The notes under the pieces: model-generated | Seen by the model: the letters and a program-made list of their open reading frames with translations, nothing else | Databases searched by the model: none | Told to the model about the DNA's origin: nothing | Program-made: the position numbers and the translations under genes | Assembly (NCBI GenBank): GCA_001002135.1 | Contig: LCLP01000004.1 | Coordinates: 1 to 38,330, forward strand | Direction: 5' to 3' | DNA from: Candidatus Pacebacteria bacterium GW2011_GWA1_46_10 | GTDB lineage: Bacteria > Patescibacteriota > Microgenomatia > UBA1400 > PJMF01 | Length of the DNA: 38,330 bases | Part shown: positions 13,753 to 38,330 of the stretch, piece after piece | How the letters are laid out: every line of letters starts with the position of its first letter | How positions within the stretch are numbered: the first letter of the stretch is position 1

Positions 13753-15930
13753 ATGACTCCACACACCCTGCTCGAGTTGAAGACCGGCCGTGACGCCGAG
13801 CACACTCCAGAAACTGCTGTCCAGCTCTTTTCAACTCTGCCCAAACTCTACGACAACCTGCTGTATCGACTGATTGGCCGCAAAGAGCGCTTGAGCTTTG
13901 AGATCTATGTCCGGAATCAAACAATCCGGTTTCTCGTGTTTTTGCCAACAAGACTGACTGAATACATGCGCGGCACTATCTTGGCCAGTTATCCAGAGGT
14001 CATGATCTCCGAGTTACTGACCGATCCCCTAACTGATTTCTTTGATGACCAAGGCAAACTAACTTCACCTGAAAAGGTCAAGACTGGTCGGCTGAGACTG
14101 CAAAACGCCGAGTACTTACCACTAAAAACCTATTTAGATTTTAAGGAAGTTGATCCTTTGGCTTCACTGCTTGCCTTCCTATCCAAGAGTCAACTCGGAG
14201 ATCTTGTCCACATTCAATACGCCTTAAGTGACGATGGTGAGTGGTGGAAACAGCGCGGCTGGCGCCAGATTAGTGGTAAGTCAAGCGATGATGCTTCGGC
14301 CAACTATCACCGTCAAAAATCACTCATTCAAGAAAAACTAGACAACAAAGCTTTACGTGTCTCGATCAAAATCGCAGTGGCCAGTGACACTAAAGAACGC
14401 AGTGAGCTGATGCTGGAAACACTGGCCGCGACCTACAACTCCATCTCCAAAAGTGAGGGTAATTCACTTATCTTACGCCGTCACTACATTATGCCTGAGT
14501 ACTTTTTAAGACAGATGATGGTTCGCGTCCGCAGCTGGTGGGGCAAAATGCATCTTTCTTTGACTGAATTGGCCACTTTGTACCATTTGCCTAATAAACA
14601 ACTCGAGGTCATTCCAAATATCGCCTGGGGCAAGAATCTCTTGGGCGAACCGCCGGAAAACTTGCCGATTGTGACCCGTGACAGCCCACCGGAAATTAAA
14701 GACAACACCAACGTTTTCGCACAGACAACCTACAAAAATCAGCTCGTGAAGTATGGCCTGAAGCGCACTGATCGGCGCCGGCACATGTACGTGATTGGTA
14801 AAACCGGCACCGGCAAGTCGACGCTCCTGGCCAACATGGCGATCAATGACCTCAAGAACAACGAGGGTTTGTGCGTGATCGATCCTCATGGCGACTTGGT
14901 TGAAACATTACTCAATTACATTCCGGCCCACCGTATTAATGACGTCATTTACTTTGACCCGGCTGACCCCGAGCGCACAGTGCAGATTAACTTGTTTGAG
15001 GGTGAAAACTTAGTCCATCGTGAATTGATTGCTTCCGGTATTATCTCGATTTTCCATAAGCTCTATGAGTATTCCTGGGGTCCCCGTCTCGAGTATATTT
15101 TGCGTAACGCCTTGCTCACCTTACTAAAAAGTGATGGCGCGCGACTATCGGACATCCTTGAATTACTGACCAATCGTAAATTCCGCGACAAATATGTTGA
15201 GAAATTGGACGACCCGATTTTGAGAAGTTTTTGGGTCGATGAATTTAATAAAATGCAGGAGCGGCTACGCACGGAGTCAATCGCCCCAATTCTCAATAAA
15301 GTCGGCCAATTTGTCTCTTCGCCGCTAATTCGCAATGTGGTCAACGCCCAGAAAAGCTCGTTTAGTGTTGAGGAAATCATGGCGCAGGGGAAAATTCTCT
15401 TAGTCAATCTTTCCCAGGGGAAACTGGGTGAGGATAACGCCACGCTGTTGGGCGCAATGATGATTACTAAGATTCAGCTGGCGGCCATGGGTCGGGTACA
15501 CAGCGCTGAAGAATCACGGCGTGACTTCTTCTTGTATGTCGATGAATTCCAGAACTTTGCGACAGAAGCTTTTATTAAAATTCTCTCTGAGGCACGTAAA
15601 TATCGCCTCAATCTAACGCTGGCTAATCAATACATTGCCCAGATCCCCGAAGAGGTCCAAAAGGCCATTTTCGGCAACTGCGGCAGTATGGCCAGTTTCG
15701 TGATGGGGGCCGAGGACGCCGCACTCTTCACTAAAGAATACGGCGAACACTACACGTCGGAAGAACTCGTTTCCCTCGAGAGGTACCAGATTATTAACAA
15801 GCTCTCAATTGATAATTTGGTGAGCTTGCCATTTCCAGCCTTCACTCTACCACTGGCCAAAAGCAGTAACCTCAATCGGGAAAAAGTGATTCGCGTCAGC
15901 CGCGAGCGGTATTCCAAAAAGCGACAGTAA
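13753..15930 (+). CDS. TraG/VirD4-like (type IV coupling protein / DUF87-type) ATPase
   Basis: YVIGKTGTGKSTLLANMAINDL Walker A, GLCVIDPHGDLVETLL, KILLVNLSQGKLGEDNATLLGAMMITKI, FFLYVDEFQNFATEAFIKILSEARKYRLNLTLANQYIAQI. Confidence 0.9.
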   Translation: MTPHTLLELKTGRDAEHTPETAVQLFSTLPKLYDNLLYRLIGRKERLSFEIYVRNQTIRFLVFLPTRLTEYMRGTILASYPEVMISELLTDPLTDFFDDQGKLTSPEKVKTGRLRLQNAEYLPLKTYLDFKEVDPLASLLAFLSKSQLGDLVHIQYALSDDGEWWKQRGWRQISGKSSDDASANYHRQKSLIQEKLDNKALRVSIKIAVASDTKERSELMLETLAATYNSISKSEGNSLILRRHYIMPEYFLRQMMVRVRSWWGKMHLSLTELATLYHLPNKQLEVIPNIAWGKNLLGEPPENLPIVTRDSPPEIKDNTNVFAQTTYKNQLVKYGLKRTDRRRHMYVIGKTGTGKSTLLANMAINDLKNNEGLCVIDPHGDLVETLLNYIPAHRINDVIYFDPADPERTVQINLFEGENLVHRELIASGIISIFHKLYEYSWGPRLEYILRNALLTLLKSDGARLSDILELLTNRKFRDKYVEKLDDPILRSFWVDEFNKMQERLRTESIAPILNKVGQFVSSPLIRNVVNAQKSSFSVEEIMAQGKILLVNLSQGKLGEDNATLLGAMMITKIQLAAMGRVHSAEESRRDFFLYVDEFQNFATEAFIKILSEARKYRLNLTLANQYIAQIPEEVQKAIFGNCGSMASFVMGAEDAALFTKEYGEHYTSEELVSLERYQIINKLSIDNLVSLPFPAFTLPLAKSSNLNREKVIRVSRERYSKKRQ

Positions 15931-23811: not shown

Positions 23812-24066
23812 ATGAATAAAGTTCAACTCACGCTCACTGATGAGGAGGCGTCTATTTTGTCTGAATATGGTGGTCGATTCGGTTATAGCTTGCCAAAAAC
23901 GATCAGATTTCTTATTGGCAAAGCCGTAGAAACCCATTTAGAATCAAAAACTCCTGTCTATCGCTTGAGTGACAGCGGTGAAGCGAAAGGTCTCAAGGCT
24001 TTAGAGGAAGATCGACAGGGTAAAACTATTAAAGTTACTAATTTCAAGAAATTTTTTAGTCAATGA
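23812..24066 (+). CDS. Putative antitoxin of a type II TA pair
   Basis: 84-aa protein (MNKVQLTLTDEEASILSEYGGRFGYSLPKTIRFLIGKAVE...), overlapping the downstream toxin-like ORF by ATGA. Confidence 0.65.
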   Translation: MNKVQLTLTDEEASILSEYGGRFGYSLPKTIRFLIGKAVETHLESKTPVYRLSDSGEAKGLKALEEDRQGKTIKVTNFKKFFSQ

Positions 24067-24332
24067 TCGAGGTCAAATTCACCCGATCTTTTAAGAAAAG
24101 ATCACTCAAACTCAGTAGAAGAAACCAGCAACTCCAAAAAAATCTGGCCAAACAATTAACTTTATTTGAACAAGATCCTTTTCATCCGTCATTAAAAACT
24201 CACTATTTAGAGGGTAAACGAACCCACCAGCTTTCTATTTGGATTCAAAATAACTTAAGGGCACTGTGTGTTAAAAGGGATGATTATTATATTTTCTTTG
24301 ACCTCATCAATCACGATCAATATTATCACTAA
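24063..24332 (+). CDS. RelE/ParE-superfamily (YafQ/HigB-like) toxin
   Basis: MIEVKFTRSFKKRSLKLSRRNQQLQKNLAKQLTLFEQDPFHPSLKTHYLEGKRTHQLSIWIQNNLRALCVKRDDYYIFFDLINHDQYY. Confidence 0.8.
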   Translation: MIEVKFTRSFKKRSLKLSRRNQQLQKNLAKQLTLFEQDPFHPSLKTHYLEGKRTHQLSIWIQNNLRALCVKRDDYYIFFDLINHDQYYH

Positions 24333-32126: not shown

Positions 32127-33782
32127 ATGAAACTCACCAGGACACTTGCCCGGGTTTTTTGTGTTTCCCTCCTTTTCTTGGGATCGGCCAGCCGCGCCCA
32201 GGCTGCGTTCTGGGACCTCTTCTTTAATAACACCAGTGTTGAAGAAAACGTTGATGATACCATCGACGCCGTTACTCAATCTGAAACTGAGGGCATTCCC
32301 TCTCACGAAAGTTTTGTTGATAACAACTTACTCAATGTCCAAACGTCGTCGTTGATTTTTGTGGCCGGGCCGCCTGAATCTGCCACTGGTGAAGAGTCAA
32401 CCCTCACTGAAGAACAAAAACGGATTGTTTACAAACGATATGGCGGTGGAGCGATTGGTGCGGTCGGCAACGGTATCGCCGCTCTATACACTCCACCCGC
32501 TTCATCGACTACCTATGTCGCTGATCTGCTTCGCTCGGCTCACATTGTGCCTCAAGCTCAAGCCCAGGGTTTGGGTTTTGCATCATTGGATCCGATCCTG
32601 GGTACCTGGAAAATTTTCCGGAATGTAGCCTACCTTTTCTTCGTGGTGATCTTTCTTATTATTGGTTTCATGATTATGTTCCGCCAAAAAATTAATGGCC
32701 AAACGGTGGTCACTGCTCAACAAGCTATTCCTGGGATTATTGTCTCGCTCATTTTCGTGACGTTTTCCTATGCCATCGCCGGCTTTATGATCGATCTGAT
32801 GTATTTACTGATGTATCTGATGATTGTTTTGTTTAACCCACCAGAAGGGACAGCGATTTTGGACAACAATATTTTCGACGCCATCTGGTATATTCTGATC
32901 GGCAAAGGTGAGGGGGTCTCTCTCTTTAGTAGTGTGAGCGGCGCCGTGGAAAACTTCACCAAGGCGTTCACTGGTAATTTAGGTGCCGCCAGTGGAGCAC
33001 TCGGGTGGCTGGCGGGTATCACTGCGGCGCTGGTGGTCGCGGTCGCTATCTTAATTGCCGCTTTCAAGATTCTCTTTGAACTGCTGAAAACCTATGTCTC
33101 AATTGTTCTCTCCATCGCTCTGGCCCCCATCACTTTGATGTTTGGGGCTATTCCGGGTCAAAATAGTTTCTTTAAATGGTTAAAGAGACTAGTTGGTAAT
33201 TTACTGGCCTTCCCAGTGGTACTGATGACTTTTATCATTTACCACCTCTTCACCCAAAGCGCCGTTGAGGCAGGTGGCGCCGCGACGGGCGGGTTTATCC
33301 CACCCTTCTTACCCGGCCGCGGCGTTTCCGGTGCCATTGTGACCCTGGTAGGCATCGGTATTTTGCTCATCATTCCGGAAATCATTCAGCAAGTCAAAAA
33401 AGCCTTCGGCGCCGAGGGTGGAATAGTTGAAACACTTGGTGGACAGATGATCCAACGCACTCGCGAAGCAGGGAGAGATACTCTTCAGTATGGTTGGCCT
33501 ACTGCAAGAGTTACGGGCGGCCTGGGTTTAGATGCCTATCGTGCATACCAACAAAGAAGCTCTAGAGGACCTAAAGCAGTGTTGTCGGGTTTTTGGGATC
33601 TAGCAAGAGTTAATACTCCAATCAGAGCTGGAGAAGCATACGATCAGACCCAAGGACTTCTTAATATAAAGCAATCTTTAAAACCTTCAAATTTTGAGCA
33701 TTTATTAGACAGTGAACGCAGAGAAAGACGCAAAGAAAAACGAGGAAAAATCGTAAAGAATCTATCGGATATTACAAATTAA
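32127..33782 (+). CDS. VirB6/TrbL-like polytopic T4SS membrane protein
   Basis: Signal peptide, several TM helices (FFVVIFLIIGFMIMFRQKING...; ALVVAVAILIAAFKILFELLKTYVSIVLSIALAPITLMFGAIPGQNSFFKWLKRLVGNLLAFPVV), charged C-terminal tail. Confidence 0.75.
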   Translation: MKLTRTLARVFCVSLLFLGSASRAQAAFWDLFFNNTSVEENVDDTIDAVTQSETEGIPSHESFVDNNLLNVQTSSLIFVAGPPESATGEESTLTEEQKRIVYKRYGGGAIGAVGNGIAALYTPPASSTTYVADLLRSAHIVPQAQAQGLGFASLDPILGTWKIFRNVAYLFFVVIFLIIGFMIMFRQKINGQTVVTAQQAIPGIIVSLIFVTFSYAIAGFMIDLMYLLMYLMIVLFNPPEGTAILDNNIFDAIWYILIGKGEGVSLFSSVSGAVENFTKAFTGNLGAASGALGWLAGITAALVVAVAILIAAFKILFELLKTYVSIVLSIALAPITLMFGAIPGQNSFFKWLKRLVGNLLAFPVVLMTFIIYHLFTQSAVEAGGAATGGFIPPFLPGRGVSGAIVTLVGIGILLIIPEIIQQVKKAFGAEGGIVETLGGQMIQRTREAGRDTLQYGWPTARVTGGLGLDAYRAYQQRSSRGPKAVLSGFWDLARVNTPIRAGEAYDQTQGLLNIKQSLKPSNFEHLLDSERRERRKEKRGKIVKNLSDITN

Positions 33783-33808: not shown

Positions 33809-36526
33809 CTAGTGTCCTGATGCTTTTGATTTATCCTCGGTAGTGCTCTCACTAATTTTATCCCAATTCCAAGGAGCCACTGTTCTCATTTTTTCTCCAT
33901 GTTCATCCCTTTTACCAACATCCCAAGGAAGTGACGTCGCCACTTGCTTTTCCCAACTCACTGGGTGTTCATTATGAAAGCGCCACAATTCACCCCGATA
34001 ACGTTTTTCCTCATCAATAATATCAGCTCTTAACAATGTTCTAAGTTTCCTCTCGCGCTCTCTCCTAGTATGTGCTTCAAGATAGTTTCTAACATAATCT
34101 TCCGCATACCATGGTAATCCATCAGCTCCGCCAATATTTTTAAGTATCACTTCCTCTACTACGTGCCATACTTCTCGTTGGTCGTGCCTTCCCTCAAATT
34201 GATTAAGTAGCCTGTGAATATACCGCATTGTAAACGGCCCAAAAATGAGATGGTGTTTCCCAGGAATAAGCTTTGCTTTACCTATTATATCTTGGCTAAA
34301 GTGTACTATCTTGTCTTTAATGTCTTGTATGCTGAGAGGCTCAGACGCAGGCGCGCGGAACTCTTCGTACATATCCTGCAATCTGGCGAATGCCAATGTT
34401 ATATAATCATCGGGTTTGTAGCCGCCATGCTCGAGATTAAACCTACCAATAACGTCCAAGGAGTCCCCGTACCCTAGTTTGCTGTAAGTGAGAACAAATT
34501 TCTCTATGTCTGCTTCTACATTCTCGACCCCGGCCGATCTTAATTCCCTTCTTATCAAATCAAGTTTTTCAGAAATTAAATCATAAATTCTTTCTAGTTC
34601 CGTCAGCTGCAATGTTAAATCATTCTTTTCATTGGTAAGGTCACTAATTCTCGCTGCATCAGTAGCAGGATTAAGTCCTGCTATTTCTGTGTCAATATCT
34701 CCAATTCTAGTTTGAACATTTAATAAATCTTCAGCGTATTCATGAGCCTTATCTCTCAGTTTTTCCTCTGGCTTTTCTAATCTTTTCTTTATTTTACGAC
34801 GGGCCAGCAAAGCCTCTTTTTCTTGGTCAACCCTTAAGATATTTATAAGCAGCTCGCCGGGCATCGGTAACAAGCTGTCATTAAGATCAATTTCACCCGG
34901 AGCTAATTTTCTAAACTCTACAGTTCCATCATGGCGAATAACCTTTGGGATAGGATTCCCGTCAGCGTCAGCGCGGTACTTCTTGGGGTCGTCAGGGTCA
35001 TAGTCATATTGAACAATCACCATTTTTTCCCTAAGGTAGTGCACCCACTCCGGAATCTCTCCCCATACCGTTTTTCTGAAAAGATTTATTATATTCCACA
35101 ATCTCTCTGCTTCTTTTGGTCTAGCTACTGCATTTCTCAAGGTTCTTTGGGCTCTTTTGTATTCTGGTTCGGAGATTTTTTCTCCGTTGGGTTTTCTCCC
35201 TCCTGATTCATAAAGAGAGACGTTCTCTTCTGCCTCTTTAACAGCCCAATCTTCTTTATGCATATAAGACAATAGTGCTTTTGGTATATAAAGCAATTCT
35301 TCAGAGGTCGCATCAGCCAAACTGAGAGCGTAGCGGTTTCTGCTGTACATACCAGCCGCCCATGGTGCAACAACAAACAGTTCATCTACATATGGTTCGC
35401 CCCGTACCTGAGCGAGAGCCAAGCCGTGTTGGCGAGTGGTTCTATGCATAAGGTGTGGGATAAAAGCATGAGATTTTGAAGATTGTGCCCATGCATATTT
35501 AACGAGCTTATCAACCAGTTTTTTTGGCAATTTCGCATAAAACTTTGCTTCCAGGTGTTTATAAAATTGTCCAACCTTATCGTCTTTTAATCGCAAGTAG
35601 CTGAAGTCACCATCATGGTCACTTCCCTCAGGATCACGATCCAATCCTCCAAACTCTGGATAATGCTTAATTCTTTTCACAATGTATTCATATACTTCCA
35701 AGGCATCATAATTAATCCCTGACTTATTCAAATCCTCTGCAGTAATATCGCTGTCCTTCCCCATACTTGTTTTTTCGGGCTTTTTTATAAATAGAGCACG
35801 AGCCATTCTTACGTAAGGTGCTGTTTTTTGTAACATTTCCTCTGAAATAGCACTCCACCACACATCAAAACCAACTAACCCAGAGTCACCTGTCCCGGTA
35901 ATAGCTGCCAAAACCCGAATCATCCTCAGCCAAGAGACTCTCCATTCATCTACTTCTTTTGTAATCTTTTGCAGAAACTCGCTATTAAGCTGTCGGGCTC
36001 TATCTTCCGCAAAATCTTGTGTAACATCAAGTTCCTCTGCAATTTCATCGATGATCATTTGTTTAGGAGATTTTTCATCCTTTCTGCCGGCAATAAATCC
36101 CATCGCCGCCAATTCATCAGGGTTGAGCTTTCCTTTGATTTTGTTTTTGTAAGACTCAATCAATCCATCTAAAACGCTCATGGAAAAATCAAAGTCTGCT
36201 TTATCTGTAACAAGCACACCGGCTATCGTCGCCCCAGGCTTAAAACGCAGGGCAGGGTACTCTTTTTTAAGAATATCTATTTCTTTCTCAATATCCAAAA
36301 TTCTTCTAACCGCTGCATGCCTTACATACTGATCGTCAAGATTTTCCTCTTTCAAAGTTGAGTTTTCTGGGTTGGCAGTATCAACATTGAAGAGTAAATC
36401 TTCAAGCTGCTCAAATAGATACTCCATCGCAACAGAAGAGCCCTCTACATCAACCATTAGCTGGGATAAGTCGAGTCTTCCAGTTACTTCAGTTTTAGCC
36501 GTTTCGTACGGGAAGTGCTCAGTCAT
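33809..36526 (-). CDS. Large (905 aa) soluble protein of unknown function, coiled-coil segments
   Basis: Single long ORF without signal peptide or TM; TAAAAT box 7 nt before the ATG (-35 TTGCTT, N18). Confidence 0.8.
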   Translation of the reverse strand: MTEHFPYETAKTEVTGRLDLSQLMVDVEGSSVAMEYLFEQLEDLLFNVDTANPENSTLKEENLDDQYVRHAAVRRILDIEKEIDILKKEYPALRFKPGATIAGVLVTDKADFDFSMSVLDGLIESYKNKIKGKLNPDELAAMGFIAGRKDEKSPKQMIIDEIAEELDVTQDFAEDRARQLNSEFLQKITKEVDEWRVSWLRMIRVLAAITGTGDSGLVGFDVWWSAISEEMLQKTAPYVRMARALFIKKPEKTSMGKDSDITAEDLNKSGINYDALEVYEYIVKRIKHYPEFGGLDRDPEGSDHDGDFSYLRLKDDKVGQFYKHLEAKFYAKLPKKLVDKLVKYAWAQSSKSHAFIPHLMHRTTRQHGLALAQVRGEPYVDELFVVAPWAAGMYSRNRYALSLADATSEELLYIPKALLSYMHKEDWAVKEAEENVSLYESGGRKPNGEKISEPEYKRAQRTLRNAVARPKEAERLWNIINLFRKTVWGEIPEWVHYLREKMVIVQYDYDPDDPKKYRADADGNPIPKVIRHDGTVEFRKLAPGEIDLNDSLLPMPGELLINILRVDQEKEALLARRKIKKRLEKPEEKLRDKAHEYAEDLLNVQTRIGDIDTEIAGLNPATDAARISDLTNEKNDLTLQLTELERIYDLISEKLDLIRRELRSAGVENVEADIEKFVLTYSKLGYGDSLDVIGRFNLEHGGYKPDDYITLAFARLQDMYEEFRAPASEPLSIQDIKDKIVHFSQDIIGKAKLIPGKHHLIFGPFTMRYIHRLLNQFEGRHDQREVWHVVEEVILKNIGGADGLPWYAEDYVRNYLEAHTRRERERKLRTLLRADIIDEEKRYRGELWRFHNEHPVSWEKQVATSLPWDVGKRDEHGEKMRTVAPWNWDKISESTTEDKSKASGH

Positions 36527-36595
36527 AAAGGCTATTTTAGCACCGCCTTCCTTCTGGAAGCAATGTTTCTTTCCACTTGATTCCTTAAAAAATGT

Positions 36596-37303
36596 CTACA
36601 TTACTAAATCAGGGTTTGGCGCACCGATATCGGTATGAGTCTCGATGAGTTTAGTAGCTTTAAGTTGTTCTGCTATATCAGAAACAAAATCAAACACTCC
36701 ATATTGGGAAGCTTGAAAAGCCGCTATCTCTTTTTCAATACTGGCCAGTCTTTCTGCCAATACTGTTGCCATCCCGCCAGTTTTTTCTTCAGCAGTCGGT
36801 CCTTCTGCTTGAATGGAGTCAATGTTTTGGATTGCTTCAAGCGTATTTTTCCTTTTCTTTTCAAGCTCATTAAGTCTTACAACAAACAGCGTCAGCAACT
36901 TTCTTTCAACTTCTCTTATAAATTCAAGCAATGAATCTTGCGTTTGATACACTTTCTCAAGAGTAATATCATGGGCTGTTGAAAGCTTATTGAGAAGATC
37001 TATGTACACCGGCGTGGATAATTCAACGATTTCTGGATTTGGTAAACCGAAACTGTCATACAAAAACCGCCAAGCATCTTCTTCTTTTAGCGCGGGGACA
37101 AGTTGCTCCACTAAAAACTCAATATTATCAGTTAAAACTCGAAACCAAACTCTTTCACTCTCTGGTAAACTCGTAATTAAAGCATCAGCGTTTCGGATTT
37201 TCCTCTTTTTTTCTAAAGGAAACAAGCCATCACCTAGTCTAGTTTGGTCAAGTCGGGCATTAAATATGTCCTCCGTGGTCACTGCTTTTGTTATTTCTGA
37301 CAT
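36596..37303 (-). CDS. Unknown 235-aa coiled-coil protein, first gene downstream of the cobalamin riboswitch
   Basis: ORF MSEITKAVTTEDIFNARLDQTRLGDGLFPLEKKRKIRNADALI...; AAGAAAGG upstream of the ATG. Confidence 0.8.
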   Translation of the reverse strand: MSEITKAVTTEDIFNARLDQTRLGDGLFPLEKKRKIRNADALITSLPESERVWFRVLTDNIEFLVEQLVPALKEEDAWRFLYDSFGLPNPEIVELSTPVYIDLLNKLSTAHDITLEKVYQTQDSLLEFIREVERKLLTLFVVRLNELEKKRKNTLEAIQNIDSIQAEGPTAEEKTGGMATVLAERLASIEKEIAAFQASQYGVFDFVSDIAEQLKATKLIETHTDIGAPNPDLVM

Positions 37304-37382
37304 CGCCAGCCTTTCTTAATACAAAATTACTACTAGCTGTAGTGTTTACAGCAAGCTTTTTCTTTGTTGGTGTTGGGGAAAT

Positions 37383-37577
37383 AAAAAACTCCCCCTCTGG
37401 GGAGCATCAGTTGGGGTTAACCTTCCCAAGGTTGATGCTCGTCAAAGATTACTTGCTGAAGACCGGACTTTTCTTATGGCTTTTAGCCAAAGAGCTCACC
37501 GTTGCGGCACAGTGGCGGATTTTCACCGCCTTCCACAGCAGAAACTAAAGTAACAAACTTTTGGTGGCCGCGCAAGT
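37383..37577 (-). promoter_or_regulatory. Cobalamin (B12) riboswitch: aptamer about 37451-37577 plus terminator expression platform 37383-37440
   Basis: Minus strand core GGAAGGCGGTGAAAATCCGCCACTGTGCCGCAACGGTGAGC matches the GGAA..GGUGaAAaUCC..CUG..CCGCAAC.GU consensus. Variable hairpin TCTT-GGCTAAAAGCC-AAGA, B12-box-like AAGTCCGGTCTTCAGC, P1 ACTTGC (37577-37572)/GCAAGT (37456-37451). Terminator CTCCCC-AGAG-GGGGAG-TTTTTT (37404-37383) overlaps the hairpin 37440-37402. Confidence 0.87.
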
Positions 37578-37614: not shown

Positions 37615-37824
37615 GTGAAAAGAAAACATTCATTTGCCCTCCAATACAAAACAAGAAAAGAGCTGGCAGTGGCCGTATTTTCTCTTGGCAATTTTGTTGG
37701 CGGATCATTGGCTATCGGCCAAGTATTTGGTGGCGGAGCCTTTTATCTGGCCTATTTTATAGTTGGTATTTTTTTAATTTTTGTGTTGTATACTGCTGCA
37801 GTATTTCTTATGGAAACAAAATGA
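37615..37824 (+). CDS. Small membrane protein, possibly 2 TM
   Basis: VKRKHSFALQYKTRKELAVAVFSLGNFVGGSLAIGQVFGGGAFYLAYFIVGIFLIFVLYTAAVFLMETK. The track start at 37561 is a TTG inside the riboswitch footprint. Confidence 0.6.
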   Translation: MKRKHSFALQYKTRKELAVAVFSLGNFVGGSLAIGQVFGGGAFYLAYFIVGIFLIFVLYTAAVFLMETK

Positions 37825-37940
37825 AAGAAGCTATCATTAATTTCCTCGAGACACCAGGAACTGCTCTGCTCGTTGTTGGTGCGGCAGTTGCTCTTTACGC
37901 CTTGTTTATTATCTTATTTACCGGCACCAAAAAAGATTAG
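37821..37940 (+). CDS. 39-aa single-TM small protein
   Basis: MKEAIINFLETPGTALLVVGAAVALYALFIILFTGTKKD; ATGA overlap with the upstream ORF; absent from the supplied ORF track. Confidence 0.55.
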   Translation: MKEAIINFLETPGTALLVVGAAVALYALFIILFTGTKKD

Positions 37941-37981: not shown

Positions 37982-38330
37982 ATGGCCGATACTGATACTC
38001 AACCAGAACTCCAGACAGACCAGGAGCAGGCCCAAAATCCGCTCAACAGTCCTATAGGATCATACGTCCTCAAACGCCTAAATCCTGATGCTGATCCAGC
38101 CGAAGTTCGTCAGTTTTTTGCCCAGCTTGACGGCATCAAGGAAAACGAGGTTATCTCTGCTAATTTTAATTCTTTGTTTCAAAATACTCCTGGTTTTAAC
38201 CTCCGCTACACCAAGAGCTCATACTTCGACGGCGAGCACCCAGGGGAAATGTACTTGTTCAGGAGCGACCTGGCACTCATTATGTATGATTGGCTCTCCC
38301 GCCAACCAGAGTTAAAACAAAACCTCAGTA
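37982..38330 (+). CDS. Unknown protein, 3'-truncated at window edge
   Basis: Open to the window end: MADTDTQPELQTDQEQAQNPLNSPIGSYVLKRLNPDADPAEVRQFFAQLDGIKENEVISANFNSLFQNTPGFNLRYTKSSYFDGEHPGEMYLFRSDLALIMYDWLSRQPELKQNLS. TATAAT at 37968-37973, 8 nt before the ATG. Missed by the ORF track. Confidence 0.8.
   Translation, partial: MADTDTQPELQTDQEQAQNPLNSPIGSYVLKRLNPDADPAEVRQFFAQLDGIKENEVISANFNSLFQNTPGFNLRYTKSSYFDGEHPGEMYLFRSDLALIMYDWLSRQPELKQNLS

What the first reader, a model, noticed from the sequence alone, without database searches (positions are those of the whole stretch)
33809..37303. Two-gene unknown operon (235 aa + 905 aa) as candidate novel B12-linked or T4SS-linked system
Both proteins lack obvious signal peptides, TM segments or motifs I recognise. 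They run opposite to the flanking secretion genes and lie downstream of the riboswitch. The 905-aa gene also has its own promoter-like box (TTGCTT-N18-TAAAAT, 7 nt from the ATG), so riboswitch control may apply strictly only to the first gene. Assignment as effector, scaffold or B12-related protein is inference.
Basis: inference. Interest (0 to 1): 0.7.

Follow-up and report, generated by a model that had tools for sequence, protein, structure and literature searches.

The report
B12 riboswitch beside a secretion system
In a group of tiny, probably host-dependent bacteria, a vitamin-B12-sensing RNA switch sits in front of an unknown protein that repeatedly lies beside, or heads the operon of, their type IV secretion machinery, which suggests that B12 supply controls a machine whose job is unknown.

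Summary
A 235-aa and a 905-aa gene lie on the minus strand behind an AdoCbl riboswitch, inside a patescibacterial (Ca. Pacebacteria-like) T4SS locus.

They are not a conserved pair. The 235-aa protein belongs to an orphan family found only as the first gene after an AdoCbl riboswitch. A pattern built from the RNA alone found 10 loci among ~85,000 species, and all 10 are followed by this gene. The leader is an attenuator: antiterminator and terminator share 4 nt in all 17 leaders tested, which predicts that AdoCbl switches the gene off.

The 905-aa protein belongs to a different orphan family. It sits tail-to-tail with a VirB6-like gene in every relative, usually outside riboswitch control.

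The wider finding concerns the riboswitch. There is usually one per genome. In seven genomes it heads a packed operon: orphan gene, M23 peptidase, small gene, PrgI, VirB4. Across the class 29 of 79 riboswitch loci (12 of 20 families) have T4SS genes within 6 kb, and 36 have B12 genes (NrdJ, adenosyltransferase, uptake). The window genome's only ribonucleotide reductase found is B12-dependent. The best reading is that AdoCbl shortage derepresses a T4SS-linked protein. Its biochemical role, perhaps host nucleotide or B12 acquisition, is inference.

The parts
37400..37559 (-). AdoCbl (class I cobalamin) riboswitch aptamer, containing CTGTGCCGCAACGGTG
   Evidence: RF01482, 50.2 bits, GA 50, E 1.9e-6; the only cobalamin-type match in the 920-kb genome
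37432..37445 (-). P13/L13 hairpin TTGA-CGAGCA-TCAA
   Evidence: Loop conserved and stem covarying (A-T/C-G, G-C/C-G, T-A/C-G) in 30 order members
37434..37440 (-). 5' strand of the antiterminator (GAGCATC: part of L13 plus the P13 3' arm)
   Evidence: Complementary to 37402-37408; same arrangement in 17 leaders
37402..37408 (-). 3' strand of the antiterminator (GATGCTC), sharing 4 nt with the terminator stem
   Evidence: folding of the isolated leader end picks this helix (z -4.8)
37382..37405 (-). Intrinsic terminator GCTCCCC-AGAG-GGGGAGT + T run
   Evidence: -12.2 kcal/mol
37310..37316 (-). Ribosome-binding site AGAAAGG of the 235-aa gene
   Evidence: Read from sequence; AAGAAAGG recurs before the ATG of many homologues
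36596..37303 (-). 235-aa gene, riboswitch-first protein (family C0)
   Evidence: predicted all-helical, pLDDT 67.6
33809..36526 (-). 905-aa gene, T4SS-locus protein convergent with the VirB6-like gene (family C53)
32127..33782 (+). VirB6-like polytopic membrane protein (551 aa)
   Evidence: Conserved neighbour in four genera; no Pfam match, so named on topology and context
37982..38330 (+). Start of the divergent T4SS operon: M23-peptidase protein, continuing on the contig to a small gene, PrgI and a VirB4 N-terminal-like ORF
   Evidence: PF01551 3.8e-14, PF12666 6.2e-8; gene order in L011
26571..28380 (+). Two T4SS pilin-domain genes
   Evidence: PF18895 8.1e-8 and 8.6e-10
13753..15930 (+). 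VirD4/TraG-like coupling ATPase
   Evidence: PF10412 3.3e-11

Best explanation
The 235-aa gene is the first gene of a transcription unit that adenosylcobalamin switches off. Without AdoCbl, the L13/P13 segment GAGCATC pairs with GATGCTC, the terminator cannot form, and the 235-aa gene (and in this genome probably the 905-aa gene behind it) is transcribed. With AdoCbl, L13 is held by the folded aptamer, the terminator forms and transcription stops. The 235-aa protein is a helical, apparently cytoplasmic accessory of the patescibacterial T4SS made when B12 is short; the 905-aa protein is another T4SS-locus component. The cell makes dNTPs only with a B12-dependent ribonucleotide reductase, so low AdoCbl means low dNTPs. 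The most likely purpose is to adjust the T4SS so that the cell obtains deoxynucleotides/DNA, or B12 itself, from its host. Shown: the riboswitch, the mutually exclusive attenuator, the gene-riboswitch link, recurrent T4SS and B12-gene neighbourhoods, and class II RNR as the only RNR found. Inferred: ligand response in the cell, T4SS accessory function, and the nucleotide/B12 purpose.
For: Riboswitch above the Rfam gathering score, one per genome. Attenuator: antiterminator and terminator share 4 nt in 17 of 17 leaders and the ligand-free state is the more stable in 16 of 17; P13 stem covaries. RNA-only pattern over ~85,000 species: 10 hits, 10 of 10 followed by a 235-aa homologue. Profile search of 281 class genomes: all 8 strong hits lie at their riboswitch. 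Riboswitch heads the operon C0/C4 - M23 protein - C36/C19 - PrgI - VirB4 with gaps of -29 to 141 nt in 7 genomes; in G036 the first gene is the 235-aa family. RS-PrgI distance is 5-7.1 kb in 9 genomes of 8 genera, with PrgI usually single-copy. T4SS core genes within 6 kb at 29 of 79 loci, 12 of 20 families. B12 side: 36 of 79 loci with NrdJ, ATR, DUF4430 or ECF-S-like genes; G063 has RS - C0 - DUF4430 - ECF-S. Window genome: RTPR-type class II RNR and PduO ATR, no NrdD or NrdB.
Against: Most C0 loci (genus g13, G033, G041, G062) are not beside T4SS genes, so the T4SS link of this family could be positional. 16 of 42 genomes of the family show no riboswitch match. In genomes where RNR genes follow the riboswitch-first gene, repression by AdoCbl of a B12-dependent enzyme would be odd unless it has its own promoter. 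No fold or motif identifies a biochemical activity. No expression data exist. Phylogenetic non-independence inflates the raw counts.
Confidence: 0.55

Rival explanations
1. The 235-aa protein is a B12-acquisition or B12-handling protein; its neighbourhood with T4SS genes is incidental.
For: G063: RS - C0 - DUF4430 - ECF-S-like genes in one operon. G006: RS drives DUF4430, an alpha-toroid protein and an ECF-S-like gene, the usual B12-uptake logic. Many C0 loci lack T4SS neighbours. An OFF switch fits uptake genes.
Against: The protein has no recognisable signal peptide or membrane span and no corrinoid-binding family match. The window genome's DUF4430 gene is elsewhere, not with C0. The T4SS link recurs in 12 families, including operons headed by the switch.
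Confidence: 0.25
2. The riboswitch-first proteins (C0 and the SPPG/C4 family) are accessory or stabilising factors of the class II ribonucleotide reductase, or dNTP-stress proteins, rather than T4SS parts.
For: Class-wide, 28 of 79 riboswitches lie within 6 kb of NrdJ, often NrdR-NrdJ-RS-ATR-gene.
Against: In the window family the RNR gene is far from the riboswitch (C1:86277 against C4:37400). The gene-riboswitch unit stays together when it moves from RNR loci to T4SS loci.
Confidence: 0.1
3. The 235-aa protein is a T4SS-secreted effector made under B12 limitation, possibly acting on the host cell; its predicted long-helix bundle resembles alpha-pore-forming proteins.
For: T4SS neighbourhood; fast divergence (12-23% identity); best Foldseek matches are AhlC/ClyA-type bundles.
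Against: Best E-value 0.03, TM-scores 0.3-0.54, model pLDDT 67.6: long helices match each other easily. No hydrophobic head segment seen by eye.
Confidence: 0.08

Closest known systems
AdoCbl (class I cobalamin) riboswitch, Rfam RF01482/CL00101
   Same: Aptamer above the gathering score, B12-box core CTGTGCCGCAACGGTG, P13/L13 element, attenuator-type expression platform
   Different: The controlled genes are orphan families and T4SS operons rather than B12 synthesis, transport or isozyme genes
Patescibacterial MPF_FATA-related T4SS (PMC12102498)
   Same: PrgI, VirB4-type ATPase, VirB6-like, pilins and a coupling ATPase are present in the window or on its contig or in the related loci
   Different: That survey does not mention a riboswitch or cobalamin; the orphan 235-, 905- and M23-family genes and the riboswitch at the operon head are additional here
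AdoCbl-riboswitch control of ribonucleotide reductase (known from Streptomyces class Ia RNR; my own knowledge)
   Same: Couples B12 level to dNTP supply; class-wide the switch is often next to NrdR-NrdJ
   Different: In the window genome the RNR is unlinked, and the controlled genes are not an alternative RNR (none was found)

Membership tests
AdoCbl riboswitch (RF01482) | Covariance-model score at or above the gathering threshold | tested here: met
   50.2 bits against 50, full-length 1-149, E 1.9e-6
AdoCbl riboswitch (RF01482) | Conserved core and P13/L13 peripheral element with covarying stem | tested here: met
AdoCbl riboswitch (RF01482) | Expression platform with mutually exclusive terminator/antiterminator | tested here: met
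   17 leaders share the 4-nt overlap; window states -22.4 against -17.6 kcal/mol
AdoCbl riboswitch (RF01482) | Binds AdoCbl and changes expression | not testable with these tools
   Needs in-line probing and in vitro transcription
Patescibacterial T4SS locus | PrgI/VirB3 and VirB4-type ATPase close by | tested here: met
   PrgI PF12666 on the same contig; VirB4 P-loop verified by Pfam in relatives G036 and G223; in the window's contig only the N-terminal-like ORF is reached before the contig end
Patescibacterial T4SS locus | VirB6-like polytopic membrane protein | tested here: inconclusive
   No Pfam match for the 551-aa gene; conserved by position and sequence across genera
235- and 905-aa proteins as T4SS structural components | Homology to a known VirB/Prg component | tested here: not met
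   No Pfam, NCBIfam, PHROG or PDB relative; the claim is linkage, not membership
B12 uptake/handling proteins | Homology to BtuF/DUF4430/ECF-S/ATR families | tested here: not met
   No Pfam match for the 235-aa protein
ClyA/AhlC-type alpha-pore-forming proteins | Significant fold match | tested here: not met
   Best E 0.03, TM at most 0.54
Two-gene system (235 + 905 aa) | Conserved adjacency | tested here: not met
   Adjacent only in the window genome; separated or unlinked in G047, G031 and G043

The most novel reading that the evidence does not exclude
In Patescibacteria an adenosylcobalamin riboswitch controls the type IV secretion apparatus itself, together with two new protein families (C0 and SPPG/C4). 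Because their only RNR needs AdoCbl, the switch senses failing dNTP synthesis and turns on T4SS-dependent take-up of nucleotides or DNA (or B12) from the host bacterium.
Probability: 0.22. Interest if true: 0.92.

Novelty: new variant of a known kind. Interest (0 to 1): 0.68.

Why it matters
The job of the T4SS in Patescibacteria is described as completely unknown for Saccharibacteria (PMC11665869), and no regulator turned up in the library searched here. A cobalamin riboswitch at the head of T4SS operons gives a concrete, testable input signal (B12, hence dNTP supply) and names two orphan families to test. It also predicts B12-dependence of episymbiosis in these uncultured bacteria.

Tried and rejected
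1) Known-family annotation of the two proteins (Pfam, NCBIfam, PHROGs, PADLOC, PDB): only coiled-coil noise. 2) The 905-aa gene's own promoter: below threshold, chance level. 3) 235 + 905 as a conserved pair: not conserved. 4) Homology between the 235-aa family and the alternative riboswitch-first family C4: none (hhalign below 1%). An iterated HMM at first seemed to join C4 with the class-wide proteins into one family, but a run without self-inclusion gave only weak support (C4 and f12 groups joined at 86% over 116 columns; G032, G073 and G074 marginal), so I treat them as a probable, not proven, superfamily held together by a hhWhSPPG motif. 5) The 905-aa protein as a paralogue of the large M23 protein family (C35/C49/C54): none. 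6) Structure of the 905-aa protein: pLDDT 40, uninformative. 7) Fold match of the 235-aa model to alpha-pore-forming toxins: not significant. 8) An ON switch for B12-dependent genes: considered because NrdJ is often nearby, but the terminator overlaps the strand that pairs with L13, which fits OFF. 9) Laying the whole genome in the Python box was not available.

Full report
WHAT IS THERE. The two ORFs are exactly as described: 905 aa at 33809-36526 (-) and 235 aa at 36596-37303 (-). An AdoCbl riboswitch (RF01482, 50.2 bits, gathering score 50) lies at 37400-37559 (-), followed by an intrinsic terminator at 37405-37388 and then the 235-aa gene with an AGAAAGG ribosome-binding site. The window is bases 1-38330 of a 44.7-kb contig of a 920-kb genome, 98.8% complete. 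The claimed private promoter of the 905-aa gene is a string whose -35 half matches 3 of 6; it fails the scan and such sites are under-represented here.

THE 905-AA GENE. It has clear relatives in G047, G031 and G043 and a weaker one in G032 (E 1.8e-4). In all five genomes it runs tail-to-tail into the VirB6-like membrane gene, with synteny of pilins, an ~850-1200-aa secreted-type protein, a 280-320-aa gene and the VirB6-like gene. Conserved blocks include VGKAKLIPGKHHLIFGPFTM and RTTRQHG. It is under the riboswitch only in the window genome: metK separates it from the 235-aa homologue in G047, in G031 it is antisense to the riboswitch, and in G043 the riboswitch is on another contig. AlphaFold2 with two sequences gave pLDDT 40 and says nothing.

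THE 235-AA GENE. It belongs to an orphan family (here C0). In +-9 kb around every riboswitch of the order (39 genomes, 525 ORFs) BLAST finds 11 members, and a profile of those 11 ranks three further riboswitch-first genes at E 2.6e-20, 4.2e-12 and 5.6e-5, then another at 0.005; the four best non-seed hits among 525 ORFs all sit at a riboswitch. A profile search of 281 genomes of the class finds 8 strong hits, each at its riboswitch, and two fragmentary weak hits elsewhere that I did not resolve. A pattern made only of RNA features (B12 box, P13/L13, antiterminator) scanned over one genome for each of 84,980 species gives 10 loci, all Patescibacteria apart from one record titled TM6 that is the same contig as a family member here (G049), and in 10 of 10 the first downstream gene is a C0 homologue. 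Most of these genomes overlap the first set, so this shows specificity rather than new sampling. The other genomes of the same family carry an unrelated gene (C4) in the same slot; it occurs in 9 genomes, always at the riboswitch, never together with C0 (G032 is assigned to C4 by position and weak similarity only, so 8 are secure). C0 is predicted to be three long helices (48-85, 90-165, 169-222; pLDDT 67.6). The best PDB match, AhlC/ClyA-type bundles, has E 0.03 and TM at most 0.54 and is not evidence of homology.

HOW THE SWITCH SHOULD WORK. In most of the family the leader reads stem-CGAGCA-stem (P13/L13), then a spacer, then GATGCTCCC...GGGAGC-TTTTTT. The stem covaries. GAGCATC of L13/P13 can pair with GATGCTC, whose last four bases begin the terminator stem, so the two are mutually exclusive in 17 of 17 leaders. 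The antiterminated state is the more stable in 16 of 17; in the window -22.4 against -17.6 kcal/mol (one search gives z -4.8 for the isolated leader end). From established knowledge of class I cobalamin riboswitches, ligand binding holds L13 in a kissing loop with L5. That frees GATGCTC for the terminator, so AdoCbl should turn the gene OFF. A few members (for example G040 and G039) have the start codon at the aptamer end, suggesting translational control.

WHAT THE SWITCH SITS BESIDE. RF01482 is found in 39 of 88 order genomes and 95 of 374 class genomes, nearly always once per genome. In seven genomes (G031, G032, G036, G039, G040, G067 of the window's family and G074 of another) it heads a same-strand operon: C4 or C0 (or an unassigned first gene in G032 and G074), then a large protein of one family (C35/C49/C54; Pfam M23 peptidase in the window's member), then C36/C19, PrgI, VirB4, with gaps of -29 to 141 nt. 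In G036 the first gene is C0. The distance from riboswitch to PrgI, usually a single-copy gene, is 5-7.1 kb in nine genomes of eight genera, while it is 67-389 kb in others such as G079, G006 and G049. Class-wide, 29 of 79 riboswitch loci in 12 of 20 families have PrgI, VirB4, VirB6-like or VirD4-like genes within 6 kb; if a random site had a 5-10% chance, binomial probabilities would be 5e-18 to 2e-10, though genomes are not independent. VirB4 and VirD4 assignments were checked by Pfam on representatives; VirB6 has no Pfam match and is named on topology and context. 36 of 79 loci have NrdJ, cobalamin adenosyltransferase, DUF4430 or ECF-S-like genes, confirming that the RNA belongs to B12 biology in this class. 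In G063 the switch heads C0-DUF4430-ECF-S. Outside the window family the riboswitch-first gene often carries a hhWhSPPG-type motif (25 of 60 against 15 of 545 other ORFs, Fisher p 6e-18; the motif was chosen after seeing some of the sequences).

PHYSIOLOGY. The window genome has an NrdR-RTPR pair (RTPR-like, TIGR02505 E 8e-73 but below the curated cut-off) and a PduO adenosyltransferase, and no NrdD or NrdB. DNA precursors therefore appear to depend on AdoCbl. T4SS genes are essential for epibiotic growth of a Saccharibacterium, and authors have speculated that the T4SS may take up nucleotides or deliver effectors (PMC11665869; PMC12102498). Linking these, low AdoCbl would mean low dNTPs, and a B12-repressed T4SS accessory would respond to it. 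This purpose is inference. A B12-uptake role and an RNR-accessory role remain open rivals.

NOVELTY. The riboswitch is a standard class. Its regulon is not standard: no paper in the library combines a cobalamin riboswitch with CPR/Patescibacteria, and the dedicated survey of patescibacterial T4SS neighbourhoods mentions neither riboswitch nor cobalamin. Only open-licence papers were searched.

LIMITS. Genomes are metagenome-assembled. Base rates are estimated, not measured. Sixteen of 42 family genomes show no riboswitch match, from loss or low sensitivity. No experiment supports ligand response or T4SS function.

Noticed in passing
L119, L120, L124, L127, L138, L147 and others: Class-wide conserved block NrdR - NrdJ - AdoCbl riboswitch - PduO adenosyltransferase - SPPG-motif orphan - ~150-aa gene - VirD4/TraG-like coupling ATPase, tying B12-dependent RNR, B12 activation and a T4SS ATPase into one neighbourhood.
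   Followed up: partly
L051, L054, L059, L081 (families f12, f3): Two or three tandem NrdJ-type class II RNR genes, some over 1000 aa with what looks like an intein (for example L051 NrdJ with LVATPSGYKPVSEIKKGEEINTVLG), behind NrdR.
   Followed up: no
L012:11207-12313 (G047): An S-adenosylmethionine synthetase gene (metK) sits between the 235- and 905-aa homologues on the opposite strand in the same-genus relative.
   Followed up: no
window 37618-37824 and 37821-37940 (+): Two tiny membrane-protein-like ORFs (about 68 and 39 aa) between the riboswitch and the divergent T4SS operon; no Pfam match for the first.
   Followed up: no
window 23812-24332 (+): Small gene pair; the second (89 aa) weakly matches YafQ/ParE-like toxins (E 4e-4, below cut-off), a likely toxin-antitoxin pair.
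   Followed up: partly
L061:3-2231 (-) (G036): The VirB4 region is read as two abutting ORFs, a 404-aa N-terminal-like part and a P-loop ATPase part.
   Followed up: partly
L077:9215-11751 (G006): Riboswitch followed by a DUF4430 protein, an alpha-alpha-toroid protein (transcobalamin-like pairing) and a DUF6580 ECF-S-like gene: a likely minimal B12 uptake operon in Patescibacteria.
   Followed up: partly
L093 and L094 (G148, G167): Weak, fragmentary matches to the 235-aa profile (E 6e-5, 3e-4) inside 561-aa open frames in another family; not resolved.
   Followed up: no
L154 (CP011212.1, GW2011_GWF2_28_16): This complete genome is titled 'candidate division TM6' in its record, yet its 853-kb contig matches G049, a member of the window's patescibacterial family; the record title looks like a mislabel.
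   Followed up: no
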